In this document: positions 1 through 9,029 of the stretch, piece after piece
Position numbering within the stretch: the stretch's first letter is position 1
How the letters are laid out: every line of letters starts with the position of its first letter
Origin: Sphingopyxis sp.
GTDB taxonomy: Bacteria > Pseudomonadota > Alphaproteobacteria > Sphingomonadales > Sphingomonadaceae
Assembly (NCBI GenBank): GCA_012035435.1
Contig: JAAUPH010000051.1
Coordinates: 1 to 11,331, forward strand
Direction of reading: 5' to 3'
DNA length: 11,331 nt
Program-made: the position numbers and the translations under genes
Notes under the pieces: model-generated
Seen by the model: the letters and a program-made list of their open reading frames with translations, nothing else
Database searches by the model: none
Told to the model about the DNA's origin: nothing

Positions 1-223
<223 letters not shown>

Positions 224-2309
224 GTTGCCCGCCCTCCAAAAGCAGCGTTCTACTTGCGGCCGCAATCGTCTCTTGCCGGTGCGCGATGATGATGCGGGTA
301 ATGCCCATCGCGCCGATGGCGGCATTGACCGCTTGTTCATGGCCGGAATCGAGGTGGGCCGTCCCTTCATCCATAATCAGGATTCTGGGCTGGCGGTAGA
401 GCGCACGGGCCAGCAGCACGCGCTGCTTTTGCCCGCCTGATAGCGTTGACCCCATATCGCCGACCAGCGTTTCATAGTGCATGGGCATTCGGGCAATGTC
501 ATTATGAATGGATGCAGCCATTGCTGCTCCCATGACCCGCTCCATATCGATAGATTCGTCAAACAGAGCAATATTGTCGGCCAGACTGCCTGCGAACAGG
601 CTATCTTCTTGCAGCACCGCCGCAATCTGGCCGTGAAAGCTCTTATAGCCGAACCGTGCGAGAGGCAGGCCATCGACCAGCACCTCACCCGCTTCCGGCT
701 CAACCAGGCCGAGCAACAGCTTGACCAACGTGGATTTGCCGCCGCCCGATGGACCGGTAATTGCGACATGCTCACCAGGCTCAACGGTCAGATTGACGCC
801 GCCCAGCACCAGCGGCTCGCTTGGCGCGTAGCGGTAGAATAAATCGCGCAGCTCGATGCGGCCTTTGAGCTTGGTTTCAATATCGGCGCTTTGGCCGAAG
901 CTCTTATCCTGGTCGGATAGCGCAATGTCAGACAGACGTTCGAGGTGCAGGCCAAGCATTCGGAACGCGATGGCTTGATCGATCAGTGCTGCTGCCTTGC
1001 CAATGAACTGGCCCTTATAGGCCATATAGGCGAACACCATGCCGACGCTGAATCCCGCCCCTTCGATAACGAACCCCACCGCCAGCCAGATAGTGACGAT
1101 ATTCTCGATGCCAAAGATGATCGTGTTTGCCGTTCCCTGCCAAAGGCCGATCCGTGCCACGCGAACATCGGCATTGACCGCATCGGTTAGCCGCGTCTGC
1201 CACAGTGCATGACGCAGCGTCTCACGTCCGAACAACCGAAGCGTCGTCATGCCGCGCAATGTTTCGATGAGGATGCTTTGCTCTTTGCCGCCGGTGATGA
1301 TCGAGGCCTCGATGGCCTCACGCTCGAACGAGAAAGAAATAAACCGGACGATAGTGTAGAGCACAAAGGCAATGATCGCCACAAAGGCCAGCAGCGGGCT
1401 ATACCAGAGCATCAAGGCCAGCGTCAGGATCGCCATGATGCCATCGACGAGCGCCGCCACTGCGCCGGTGGTCAGCATGGACTGGATTGGGCCGATAGAT
1501 TGAAAACGCGACAATATGTCGCCAGTGTGCCGTTTCTCGAACCAGTCGATAGGCAGTCGAAACAATCGCCGCGCAATGTTCGACGCCAAGCTGAACCCGA
1601 TGCTCGTGCCCGCAACGAGAAGCACGAACGAGCGAAGCAGCGCTGCACCTGCATTGATGATGGTGAACAAGCCAAAACCAAGCGCCAATACGGTCAGCAG
1701 ATCATTGTCGAGCGCAGGCACTGCCTGGTCGATGGCGAGCTGCATGTAATAGGGGGACGCCAGCACAAAGGCTTGCAGCACCAGCGTCAACACCAGCACT
1801 TGCAACAAGGCCTGCTTGATGCCGGTCATGCGTTGCCAGAGCTGCGATAGCTTTAACCGCTCGCGCTCTTTGCCGGTCTGGAAATCATTGCTGGGCCGAA
1901 GTTCCAGGGCAACACCGGTGAAATGGTCGGACATTTCGGCCATCGGCAGCCAGGTCGAGCGGCCATCGGGATTATGGATCAGCGCTCTATCGCCGTTGAC
2001 CCTTTCGAGCACAACATAATGGTTCATGTCCCAGTGCAGCACCGCAGGAACATGAAGGTTGCCGAGCTGCTCTAATGGCAGTTTGACCGCTCGCGGGGTA
2101 AGTCCGATCTTATCGGCCAACCCGATCAGCGTTTTAAGCGCCGCACCGCGCATACTTGGCGCAAAGCGGCGGCGCATCGTTCCCAAATCGATGTCGAGGC
2201 CGTGATAATTGGCGACCATTGTCAGCGAAGCGAGGCCGCATTCGGCAATCTCGGTTTGCCGCACAAGCCGCACCCGCGAGCGGGTCAGAAAACCAAGATC
2301 GAGCATCGC

Positions 2310-3560
2310 CTACCGCCGCCGCACGGCGAACAGCGGCTCGAACAGCCATTCAAGCAAGGATTGCTGTTCTGTGACAATCCTTGCGGTCAGGGACATGCCC
2401 GATACCAGAGATTCATTGCGGCCATAAGCGGTGATGCTCGCCGTATCGATTGCGACCGTGACCGGATAGACTGCAATTGTCGAACTATTCGGCCCCTGGG
2501 CATTGACCGCACTTGCCGACACGGTCTGCACTTTGCCGGTGACCGTGCCGAAGCGCTGATAGGGGAAAGCATCAATGGCAAGCCGCACCTGCTGCCCCTG
2601 TTTCACAAAGCCAATGGCAGCGCTTGGCACAGCCAGTTCGGCCCGCAACTTTGCGCCCGCTGGCACGATGGTCATCAATTGCCCTTGCGGACTGGCAGGC
2701 TGGCCGACGCGGGCGATGAGTGCAGTGACACGTCCTGCAACCGGAGCGCGGAGCACATAGGACCGAGCACCCGCCGTGCTAGCCGCTTGCTGGGCGACTT
2801 GCGCCCGTGTTGCCGAAAGACTTGCGGTCTGGGCGCGGGCTTGTGCCGATATTTGCGCGGCAGAGCGCTCATTCTCGGTTACGGCAGCACGTTTGGCGGC
2901 GAGCGATTGTTCGAGCTGTGAAAGCCCCTGTTGCCGTGCAAGCAAAGTCTCTTCGCGCACTTGCAGATCCCGCCCGCTGATGAATCCCCGATCGGCGATC
3001 GTGCGGGCGCGGTCGAGATCCTTTTGCGCCGACGCGATCAGAGCGCGTTGGGTGGTTATCTGGGATTGAAGCTGCGCAATCTCGGCAGCAAAGCCGGAGC
3101 GCTGTGCCACGAGCTGGGAAGCCTGTGCCTGAGCGGATGCTTGCGCCGCGTCCGATTGGGCGACGAGGCTTGCATCCTGCCGCGCTATAGCGGCTTCAAC
3201 CAAGGCAGCAGGGGACAATACCGCCGCGCCATCCTCCTCGGCGCGGATCGTGGCCAGTTCTGCGCCAGCGGGTACGTTCTGGCCATCGCGGACTGATAGA
3301 GCTGCAATCACACCGCTGCGTGTTGGAACAATCGACGAAACGCCTGTGTCAGGGGTGATCGTGCCGGTGACGGTCTCGACGCGGGAATAGCTCGCCAACG
3401 ACAGAAACAAAATCCCCGTCGCAACACCGCCAAAGATCAAAAAGCCAATGCTCTGCCACGCAACGGACACCACAATCGCCACGTCTCCTGACAAGCGATT
3501 ATAATGTATTGCTACAGCCTCTTTTCTAAACAAGTCGCCCAGAAATTTTTCACAGTGCAT
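2310..3560 (-). CDS. HlyD-family membrane fusion protein (CvaA/RaxA-like) of the peptide exporter
   Basis: This 416-aa periplasmic adaptor should link the C39 ABC exporter to an outer-membrane TolC-type channel. The N-terminus carries an LFRKEAV segment typical of CvaA-like adaptors, followed by one membrane helix (about 36-57). A first lipoyl-like half (~65-105) precedes a long Ala/Gln/Glu/Arg-rich coiled coil (~120-265, with many QA and RA steps). The second lipoyl half begins near LRAPVAGRVTALIARVG, and a beta-barrel/C-terminal domain follows. The ATG at 3560 is the only good start near the conserved N-terminus. A GAGG lies about 15 nt upstream, rather far for a ribosome site, and sits in an inverted repeat. 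No outer-membrane component is in the window, so a chromosomal TolC is presumably used. The gene lies 55 nt after the small peptide gene and 3 nt before the ABC gene. Confidence 0.93.
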   Translation of the reverse strand: MHCEKFLGDLFRKEAVAIHYNRLSGDVAIVVSVAWQSIGFLIFGGVATGILFLSLASYSRVETVTGTITPDTGVSSIVPTRSGVIAALSVRDGQNVPAGAELATIRAEEDGAAVLSPAALVEAAIARQDASLVAQSDAAQASAQAQASQLVAQRSGFAAEIAQLQSQITTQRALIASAQKDLDRARTIADRGFISGRDLQVREETLLARQQGLSQLEQSLAAKRAAVTENERSAAQISAQARAQTASLSATRAQVAQQAASTAGARSYVLRAPVAGRVTALIARVGQPASPQGQLMTIVPAGAKLRAELAVPSAAIGFVKQGQQVRLAIDAFPYQRFGTVTGKVQTVSASAVNAQGPNSSTIAVYPVTVAIDTASITAYGRNESLVSGMSLTARIVTEQQSLLEWLFEPLFAVRRR

Positions 3561-3575
3561 TTATTCGTCGAGTTT

Positions 3576-3609
3576 CCTCACCGCGGTGAATTTAAGCACA
3601 GAGGTGAGG
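3576..3609 (-). promoter_or_regulatory. Inverted repeat between peptide genes and hlyD
   Basis: Arms CCTCACC and GGTGAGG (7 bp, perfect) are separated by 20 nt. Within this lies a 12-nt palindrome, TCACCGCGGTGA (3578-3589). In the mRNA the hairpin would tie up the only GAGG ahead of the hlyD start. It could lower transporter translation relative to the peptides, or be a partial transcription stop. There is no T-tract, so it is not a convincing intrinsic terminator. The role is inferred from position only. Confidence 0.35.
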
Positions 3610-3615
3610 ACTCGT

Positions 3616-3807
3616 CTACGGGCAGTTCCCAGATGTCTTTCTTATAACAGAGCCATCTCTATTATACGTATATTCGGATATTGATCTACAGCCATTGGCG
3701 TTAAATAAATCAAAATATCTGAACAAACCGAACATAGCCACTGCCGTCAAGATCGACGAGGCTAGCACTGCCATCAAGACACGTTGAGGCGAACGTGTAA
3801 TGTTCAA
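3616..3807 (-). CDS. Small membrane-anchored Cys-loop protein, candidate immunity protein or second peptide
   Basis: I do not recognise a named family. The 63-aa reading uses a TTG start whose bases overlap the precursor's stop (TTGA), so it is probably read by coupled translation; an ATG at codon 12 would give a 52-aa form. There is no Shine-Dalgarno sequence ahead of either. Residues ~11-30 are one hydrophobic helix (LMAVLASSILTAVAMFGLF). After it comes a Cys40-to-Cys62 segment with EYTYNRDGSVIRKT, resembling the Cys-bounded tail of the neighbouring precursor (VYDSKGRLVKTT). There is no double-glycine leader, so it is less likely to be C39 cargo. A membrane-anchored mimic of the mature peptide would suit an immunity protein, but a second active peptide or an accessory factor is possible. 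It is AT-richer than the surrounding chromosome. Confidence 0.7.
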   Translation of the reverse strand: MNITRSPQRVLMAVLASSILTAVAMFGLFRYFDLFNANGCRSISEYTYNRDGSVIRKTSGNCP

Positions 3808-4088
3808 TTACATACGGTGGTAGTTTTCACCAACCGCCCCTTACTATCATAGACATTGGTCGTGGTGCAGTCGTCTGTGCGAGTGCCAGATGACAGTACT
3901 GCTACCACAACTGATACGATTGCCGTCCCGACAGCAGCAGCTGTAGCAGCACAAGGGGCACTGGCGGCACAAGCCGCAATCGGTGCTAGCGGACCTGGAC
4001 CGCCACCGACCTCCGCGATCTCGTCAAAGCTCAGTACTTGAATCCCACCAGCAGGTGCGAAAGCGGTATTGTGACCCATGTAAGACAT
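3804..4088 (-). CDS. Double-glycine-leader peptide precursor (putative class II microcin/bacteriocin)
   Basis: This is a 94-aa precursor with a C39-type leader. LSFDEIAEVGGG (19-30) places Leu at -12, Glu at -8, Ile at -7, Val at -4 and Gly-Gly at -2/-1 if cleavage follows Gly30. The mature peptide would be about 64 aa, starting PGPLAP. It has an Ala/Gly/Val-rich hydrophobic stretch (~35-66) typical of membrane-active microcins, then a polar tail bounded by Cys74 and Cys93 containing VYDSKGRLVKTT. Cys40 and Cys46 form a second possible pair. The ATG is fixed by GGAGAG (complement of 4092-4097) a few bases upstream. It is first in an operon with its presumed exporter. I recognise no described family, and killing versus signalling cannot be told from sequence. 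Confidence 0.85.
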   Translation of the reverse strand: MSYMGHNTAFAPAGGIQVLSFDEIAEVGGGPGPLAPIAACAASAPCAATAAAVGTAIVSVVVAVLSSGTRTDDCTTTNVYDSKGRLVKTTTVCN

Positions 4089-4167: not shown

Positions 4168-4298
4168 TAGTCTTTGCGACAGTCGAAGCATTATAATGTA
4201 AATCATATTATATACTTACATCATTGAAAGCACCACGCTCTTTGAGAGCCGACTGGCACGGAAAACCGAGGCGCGAAGCGGCTTCCTGGCATTCATGC

Positions 4299-5155
<857 letters not shown>

Positions 5156-5156
<1 letters not shown>

Positions 5157-8145: not shown

Positions 8146-9029
8146 ATGGACCTGAACTTGCTACCGCTTCTGCTCGCAGTTGCCGATGAGCGGAACTTTC
8201 GCGCCGCAGCGGACCGGCTTGGGGTCACGCGGTCCGCCGTCAGCCAGGGCATCCGCCGGCTTGAGGATGCCGTGGGGGTACAGCTGGTGATGCGAACCAC
8301 CGCGCGGTTCGCCTGACGGAGGCCGGCGAGAGGCTGGTGGACAGTGTGCGCGCGCCATTGGGGGCGGTTCAGGACGCAATTGAGGTCAGTACAGACGCGC
8401 CTAGTGGCAGGCTGCGGCTGGCCGTATCCTCGATCGCTGAGGATTTCCTGTCTGGCCCTTTGCTGGCGCGCTTTGCTGAGACGCACCCCAATGTCACCGT
8501 TGATGTGACCGTGACAGACGACGAGCTGGACATTGTGGCGCATGGCTATGATGCGGGTGTTCGCCTGTGCGAAGTGATTGAGCAGGACATGATCGCCGTG
8601 CCGGTCAGCGGTCCGCAATCGGAAGTGGCGGCGGCTTCACCTGGCTATATCGCGCAACATGGCGCACCAGATCATCCGAAGGACCTTCTGGGCCATCGTT
8701 GCATCGGGTGGCGGCCCGGTCCCAACACGGCCCCGTGGCGATGGGAGTTCGAGCAGGACGGCAAACCCTTCGACGTCATGGTCGATCCGCAAGTGACGAC
8801 CAATGATCTGCGGCTGATGTTGCGTGTGGCGCTGGCGGGAGGTGGCATCACCTTTGCGCCGCGAGACTGCATGAAGGAATATTTTGACAGCGGTGCGCTG
8901 GTCCCGTTGCTCACGGACTATCTTACGCCCTTTACTGGTTTTTTTCTTTACTTCCCCCAGCGCAAGCACATGGCACCCAAGCTGCGCGCTTTGGTCGATC
9001 ACGCTCGCGGATGGCGTGTTGCAGGCTGA
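8146..9029 (+). CDS. LysR-family transcriptional regulator, frameshift near codon 52
   Basis: The N-terminus is a LysR winged helix-turn-helix: MDLNLLPLLLAVADERNFRA, then AADRLGVTRSAVSQGIRRLE. After MRTT the printed frame stops at TGA (8314-8316). Restoring one C after 8301 (ACC ACC CGC GCG GTT CGC) gives RAVRLTEAGERLVDSVRAPL and continues to TGA at 9027-9029, about 294 aa, normal LysR length. The effector domain is intact from ~90 (GRLRLAVSSIAEDFL, and VTVDVTVTDDELDIVAHGYDAGVRL). AAGGTGG (8136-8142) precedes the ATG. Likely target: the divergent SDR gene. The missing base sits in a C-run, so a sequence error is likelier than true decay. Confidence 0.9.

What the first reader, a model, noticed from the sequence alone, without database searches (positions are those of the whole stretch)
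3616..4088. Candidate undescribed microcin: two coupled small proteins sharing a Cys-bounded Y...G...[KR]T hairpin
The 94-aa precursor has a textbook double-glycine leader (Leu -12, Glu -8, Ile -7, Val -4, GG) and ends in a Cys74-Cys93 segment with VYDSKGRLVKTT. The next protein has no leader, one membrane helix, and a Cys40-Cys62 segment with EYTYNRDGSVIRKT. Both follow the plan hydrophobic helix, Cys, 18-21 residues with Y-x(n)-G-x-[LV]-[VI]-[KR]-x(0-1)-T, Cys. A membrane-held copy of the toxin's tail would be a neat immunity or receptor-mimic design. The motif loosely recalls YD-type beta-hairpins. I know of no described family with this pairing.
Basis: partly seen in the sequence, partly recalled or inferred. 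Interest (0 to 1): 0.8.

Follow-up and report, generated by a model that had tools for sequence, protein, structure and literature searches.

The report
Sphingomonad microcin with hairpin-bearing membrane partner
A small exported peptide, probably a weapon against rival bacteria, is encoded next to a tiny membrane protein of the same overall shape that probably protects the maker, but neither role has been tested.

Summary
A 94-aa double-glycine precursor (3804-4088, -) and a coupled 63-aa membrane protein (3616-3807, -) precede an HlyD adaptor and a C39 peptidase/ABC exporter, the usual class II microcin layout. The precursor belongs to a leader family with no curated model: 11 database relatives, plus loci in Sphingomonadales genomes. 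Seven of 12 aligned precursors (four nearly identical), plus one in Qipengyuania marisflavi, end in DDC-x(n)-C (L003). The Qipengyuania precursor is also followed by a 60-aa single-helix protein ending C-x(20)-C. So the pairing occurs in both tailed precursors whose DNA I could read, and beside 0 of 10 others. AlphaFold draws both window tails as beta-hairpins. That the second protein copies the toxin's tail is not supported by sequence: shuffles match it (281 of 2000; 1160 of 2000 in Qipengyuania) and hhalign gives P 0.063. Best reading: a class IIa-type microcin with an inner-membrane immunity protein, perhaps pairing with inserted toxin. Mimicry is unproven, not excluded. Against: no C39 match in the Qipengyuania genome; no partner relatives found.

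The parts
3804..4088 (-). 94-aa microcin-type precursor: 30-aa double-glycine leader, hydrophobic Ala/Val-rich segment, TDDC...C hairpin tail
   Evidence: ORF; homologues with the same leader; tail alignment; model E74-80/E86-93
3999..4088 (-). leader (residues 1-30, MSYM...EVGGG)
   Evidence: invariant columns; coordinates; similar leader in L001, L002, L003
3810..3869 (-). Cys74-Cys93 tail of the precursor, predicted beta-hairpin; disulfide inferred
3616..3807 (-). 63-aa partner, candidate immunity protein: one helix, then Cys40-Cys62 hairpin; TTG start overlapping the precursor stop
   Evidence: same-plan protein L003:8264-8446
2310..3560 (-). HlyD-family membrane fusion protein, 416 aa
189..2306 (-). 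C39 peptidase-containing ABC exporter (PCAT), 705 aa
   Evidence: PF03412, PF00664, PF00005; 91% identical to L002 11074-13176 over 702 aa
1..223 (+). 3' end of lepA overlapping the exporter's end, as in L002; one base fewer than the copy at 4933-5155
4297..5156 (+). second, 5'-truncated lepA copy (from about codon 321) on the other side of the cassette

Best explanation
A class IIa-type (unmodified, Cys-bearing) microcin operon of a sphingomonad. The exporter's C39 domain cuts after the double glycine and HlyD/TolC-type parts release a 64-aa peptide. By analogy with microcin V, the Cys-closed hairpin tail binds a receptor on the target's outer membrane, and the hydrophobic Ala/Val-rich half inserts into its inner membrane. 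The coupled 63-aa protein is the immunity protein: it sits N-in in the producer's inner membrane with its own hairpin at the periplasmic face, where it would pair with an inserting toxin molecule of the same layout (helix to helix, hairpin to hairpin) and stop it from assembling. Shown: gene order, leader family, exporter domains, second occurrence of the pairing. Predicted by model: the hairpins. Inferred: killing, receptor use, immunity, disulfides, topology and pairing. The confidence below is for 'exported toxin plus immunity protein'; the pairing step alone I put at about 0.2.
For: Exporter and HlyD domains; leader family; exporter 91% and HlyD 83% identical in L002, where the same locus carries two leader-family precursors, each followed by a membrane protein. 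Tail and partner plan recur in L003. In one search, 2 of 2 DDC-tailed precursors and 0 of 10 others have a partner of this plan. Hairpins modelled in both window proteins. Known immunity proteins are 51-216 aa, close to the microcin and tend to be inner-membrane proteins (PMC9746304, passages read). The C-terminal 32 residues of microcin V suffice for receptor specificity (PMC12511343, passages). The small genes lie at 43-54% GC against 55-63% around them.
Against: No activity data. Partner: no homologue at E<=1 in searches limited to relatives sharing exact 5-residue words, and not demonstrably homologous to the L003 partner (380 of 3000 shuffles). Its TTG start has no clear ribosome-binding site. 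The L003 and L001 genomes show no C39 match (0 of 2), so the second tailed pair stands without such an exporter in its assembly. The exporter's presumed catalytic Asp position reads Asn. Toxin model confidence is low overall (mean pLDDT 47). Sources disagree on the domain order I borrow: PMC13174018 (passage) puts uptake at the N-terminus and the antibacterial part at the C-terminus of class II microcins.
Confidence: 0.62

Rival explanations
1. Immunity by true mimicry: the partner's hairpin descends from or imitates the toxin's receptor-binding tail and blocks the toxin's inner-membrane docking site in the producer.
For: Same plan and predicted hairpin; pairing in L003; hhalign's best alignment is tail on tail.
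Against: Residue similarity at chance level for cognate pairs (281/2000, 1160/2000); hhalign P 0.063; P0006-type and L003 toxin tails differ strongly from the window's in length and composition.
Confidence: 0.15
2. The precursor is an exported peptide signal or biofilm factor rather than a toxin, and the partner is its membrane sensor or an accessory.
For: Double-glycine peptides needed for biofilm development exist in a cyanobacterium (PMC4997328, start of abstract in the search listing).
Against: Variable cores behind one conserved leader, several with different small membrane proteins next to them, fit toxin-immunity diversification better than a signal.
Confidence: 0.12
3. The 63-aa frame is not a gene, or is mis-framed by sequencing error; the likeness to the precursor is accidental.
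For: No homologues found; weak start; the window has frame breaks elsewhere.
Against: A same-sized, same-plan frame starts 5 nt after the L003 precursor; only 1 of 82 other hydrophobic small ORFs fits the plan.
Confidence: 0.11

Closest known systems
Microcin V (CvaC/Cvi/CvaB/CvaA), class IIa microcin
   Same: Double-glycine leader, C39 ABC exporter plus HlyD-type adaptor, no tailoring gene seen between them, a small membrane neighbour as immunity candidate; C-terminal receptor-binding region in microcin V (PMC10233263, PMC12511343, passages read)
   Different: No match for the precursor in NCBIfam, Pfam or PDB sequences (CvaC itself was not compared directly); alphaproteobacterial; tail is a TDDC...C hairpin; partner carries a Cys-bounded hairpin.
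Class IIb (siderophore) microcins
   Same: Leader and exporter type
   Different: No C-terminal Ser/Gly-rich region (sequence ends KTTTVCN).
CDI ionophore toxins with CdiI (PMC11630599, passages read)
   Same: Small hydrophobic immunity proteins predicted to bind the ionophore domain
   Different: Those CdiI are predicted two-helix hairpins with both ends cytoplasmic; here one helix with a beta-hairpin that I place in the periplasm; delivery differs.
Pep5-type immunity peptides (PepI) of lantibiotics (recalled, no call)
   Same: Short membrane-anchored immunity peptide with one hydrophobic stretch
   Different: Gram-positive, no Cys-bounded hairpin (recalled).

Membership tests
Class II microcin | N-terminal leader ending in double glycine | tested here: met
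   -12 L, -8 E, -7 I, -4 V, G-G
Class II microcin | PCAT and membrane fusion protein encoded nearby | tested here: met
   PF03412/PF00664/PF00005 and HlyD families directly downstream
Class II microcin | PCAT catalytic triad Cys/His/Asp (screen used in PMC9746304) | tested here: not met
   Cys and His present; at the position read from the aligned HDP/HNP motif the window and 5 of 9 other exporters have Asn. CvaB itself was not aligned. Asn serves that role in papain (recalled), so activity is not excluded
Class II microcin | small inner-membrane immunity protein next to the precursor | tested here: inconclusive
   63-aa, one-helix protein adjacent; protection untested
Class II microcin | mature peptide under 10 kDa | tested here: met
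   6.2 kDa calculated for the 64-aa form
Class II microcin | antibacterial activity | not testable with these tools
   needs the bench
Class IIb microcin | C-terminal Ser/Gly-rich siderophore attachment region | tested here: not met
   tail sequence; feature from PMC10233263 table
Named microcin or bacteriocin families in Pfam/NCBIfam | match to a curated model | tested here: not met
   no family at E<=1 for either small protein
YD/RHS repeat | match to a YD/RHS Pfam model | tested here: not met
   none at E<=1

The most novel reading that the evidence does not exclude
Immunity by a 'dud subunit': the producer keeps in its inner membrane a protein with the same helix-plus-Cys-closed-hairpin layout as the inserted toxin, so that toxin molecules assemble with it rather than with each other; the layout, not the sequence, is what is matched, and it has been kept in the window's lineage and in Qipengyuania.
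Probability: 0.22. Interest if true: 0.75.

Novelty: new variant of a known kind. Interest (0 to 1): 0.5.

Why it matters
Class II microcin immunity proteins are hard even to recognise: PMC9746304 (passages) says the ten verified ones show no obvious sequence similarity. A toxin and partner of one layout, 64 and 63 aa, with a second diverged pair for comparison, is a small test case for how such protection works. It would also give a concrete peptide family to sphingomonads, where predicted 'bacteriocin' gene clusters have been reported for a Sphingorhabdus and an Erythrobacter strain (PMC6374434, passages) without, in the passages seen, the peptides being described.

Tried and rejected
Relatives of the partner: none at E<=1 by protein search, alone or with the L003 partner, none in plasmids. 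Precursor: no relative confirmed in viral contigs, none in plasmids for window, P0002 or L003 precursors. Residue-level relation of the two tails: cognate pairs not above shuffles, hhalign P 0.063. Relation of window partner to L003 partner by sequence: not above segment-wise shuffles (380/3000). Fold search of the partner model: nothing with E<=0.001. PADLOC matches of the L003 proteins (E 0.0057, 0.043) and sub-cut-off Pfam matches of the small proteins judged chance.

Further tailed pairs in genomes: order sample 10 of 396 genomes with any match at E<=0.01, family sample 7 of 397 at E<=0.001, genus of G003 6 of 60 at E<=0.01, genus of G002 4 of 45 at E<=0.001 (one search repeated the same genus), family again with the L003 precursor 3 of 397 at E<=1e-4. 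These samples overlap, and several weak matches lie in long frames and look like chance. I read L010-L013, L015, L017, L019, L020, L038 and L044 ORF by ORF. One search scanned all loci then held (to L053) with one leader pattern that misses weaker leaders (the first L002 precursor, L013, L015, L017, and second precursors in L012, L038, L044). Loci L014, L016, L018, L040, L041, L047-L053 were scanned only by that pattern, and L054-L058 were not read. No further tailed precursor was seen. Exporter at E<=1e-100: 8 of 45 genomes of the G002 genus; I fetched 6 regions around such exporters.

Full report
WHAT IS THERE. On the minus strand the window reads: 94-aa precursor (3804-4088), 63-aa partner (3616-3807), HlyD adaptor (2310-3560), C39/ABC exporter (189-2306). 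The partner starts with TTG inside the precursor's stop (ATTGA), without a visible ribosome-binding site, whereas GGAGAG stands 3 nt before the precursor's ATG. The stretch is 43-54% GC against 55-63% around it.

THE LEADER FAMILY. A protein search found 11 relatives. All 12 aligned sequences share AFAPAGGIQ-LSF-E--EV-G, while the cores differ. Eight of 12 contain DDC and 7 of 12 the full DDC-x(n)-C tail at the C-terminus; P0003 has DDC but a different end, and P0006, P0007, P0010 and P0011 are nearly one sequence, so the distinct tailed forms are few. The genome scan gave 3 loci: a Sphingomonadales MAG (L001), Sphingorhabdus wooponensis (L002) and Qipengyuania marisflavi (L003). In L002 the exporter is 91% and the adaptor 83% identical to the window's, next to lepA as in the window, and two leader-family precursors there are each followed by a membrane protein (64 aa, and 168 aa with a sub-threshold PrsW-protease match). 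Of 45 genomes in that genus, 8 hold an exporter match at E<=1e-100; what lies beside it varies among the six regions fetched. So one kind of export locus is loaded with changing cargo.

THE PAIRING. Qipengyuania carries the only other tailed precursor whose DNA I could read...STDDC-x25-C-S, followed 5 nt later by a 60-aa protein with one helix and C-x20-C near its end. In one search my leader pattern found 12 distinct precursors in the window and the loci then held. The 2 with the tail both have such a partner. None of the other 10 does; in several of those the next frame is another precursor, so they are not 10 independent negatives. The pattern missed some precursors with weaker leaders that I read by eye (first copy in L002, L013, L015, L017); none of these has the tail. 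Across 980 distinct small ORFs, 85 were hydrophobic and 4 fit the plan: three are those discussed and one (L026) lies antisense to the exporter gene. The plan's limits were set after I had seen L003, so this measures rarity and is not a clean test.

ARE THE TAILS RELATED? By sequence, there is no evidence for cognate pairs. Shuffling the partner tail between its Cys reaches the observed score against the window toxin tail in 281 of 2000 trials, and in 1160 of 2000 for the L003 pair; the best of ten cross-comparisons, L003 partner against window toxin, gives 50 of 2000, which ten comparisons would readily yield. hhalign of the two alignments does choose tail on tail, but with P 0.063 and probability 0.9%. 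By predicted structure both window tails are hairpins: precursor strands 74-80 and 86-93 (block pLDDT 67-75, in a model whose mean is 47), partner helix 5-38 and strands 41-48 and 54-61 (blocks 41-60 pLDDT 78-80, mean 76). The alignments behind these models had 6 and 2 sequences; the L003 proteins were not modelled. A two-stranded hairpin is a common shape, and a PDB fold search with the partner found nothing at E<=0.001.

HOW IT PROBABLY WORKS. Class II microcins are made as double-glycine precursors, exported by a C39 transporter with HlyD-type adaptor and TolC, and paired with a small, usually inner-membrane immunity protein; these immunity proteins share no obvious sequence similarity (PMC9746304 and PMC10233263, passages). 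In microcin V the C-terminal 32 residues suffice for receptor specificity (PMC12511343, passages); PMC13174018 states the opposite domain order for the class (passage). I follow the microcin V structure paper and infer the same division here: tail for the receptor, hydrophobic half for the membrane. The partner would place a hairpin right above the membrane, as an inserted toxin would, which makes direct pairing the simplest mechanism. No step of this has been tested.

AGAINST. No homologue of the partner was found, in searches of limited sensitivity. The genomes of L003 and L001 have no C39 match (0 of 2), so the Qipengyuania pair may be a relic or may depend on some other exporter. The exporter's presumed third catalytic residue is Asn in the window and 5 of 9 other exporters aligned. 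The window has frame breaks (lepA left copy, LysR), so the partner frame, unsupported by close relatives, could be affected.

LITERATURE. Searches combining microcin or bacteriocin terms with Sphingomonas, Alphaproteobacteria, Sphingorhabdus, sphingomonad and Erythrobacter listed 0, 0, 7, 8 and 6 papers, none of which by title or the start of its abstract describes this family. Two were searched for passages: PMC6374434 reports predicted bacteriocin gene clusters in all its ten cultured alphaproteobacterial strains except one, a Sphingorhabdus and an Erythrobacter among them, and PMC9860996 gives only general remarks in the passages seen. Only open-licence PMC papers are held, so this is a limited statement.

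VERDICT. The second frame is kept in plan beside the one diverged relative that could be checked. The mimicry idea is neither shown nor excluded.

Noticed in passing
window 1-223 and 4297-5156; L034 3397-3626; L035 3442-3488: A 5'-truncated lepA copy flanks the cassette. Its match begins at lepA nt 962 in the window and 961 in L035 (47 nt only), 1014 in L034 (71% identical), while lepA's 3' end overlaps the exporter's end on the other side in the window, as in L002. This may be insertion at one point in lepA with a new 3' end supplied and the old one displaced. L032 instead has intact lepA upstream of a co-directional cassette.
   Followed up: partly
L031 3425-3619 and 3727-4869: Beside a close relative of the exporter (86% identical) a 64-aa double-glycine peptide is followed by an ATP-grasp protein (GSH-S_ATP above cut-off; MvdD pre-ATP-grasp 24.0 bits, below its cut-off of 27): a graspetide-like cargo in the same kind of locus.
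   Followed up: partly
window 189-2306; L002, L030-L033: The C39 domain has Asn where L004, L005, L034 and L035 have the presumed catalytic Asp: 6 of 10 aligned, window included.
   Followed up: partly
L002 8506-8724: A stray 5' fragment of the HlyD gene (79% identical) lies after the first precursor-partner pair and before the second, as if cassettes had been added by recombination at the start of HlyD.
   Followed up: partly
L004 4435-4677: On a Rhizobium leguminosarum plasmid, a 64%-identical exporter and an HlyD gene lie beside an 80-aa Gly/Ala-rich peptide with a double-glycine leader.
   Followed up: no
L027 3-688: The 3' part of lepA also lies in the locus of a different, 43%-identical exporter match in genome G183.
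   Followed up: no
window 3561-3640: RNA stem-loop between partner and HlyD gene, z -3.15, 1 of 200 shuffles as stable; no Rfam match at gathering threshold in the window.
   Followed up: no
window 8146-9029: A LysR-type regulator appears split over two frames (family name recalled, not searched); with the lepA difference this suggests sequencing indels or a decaying region.
   Followed up: partly
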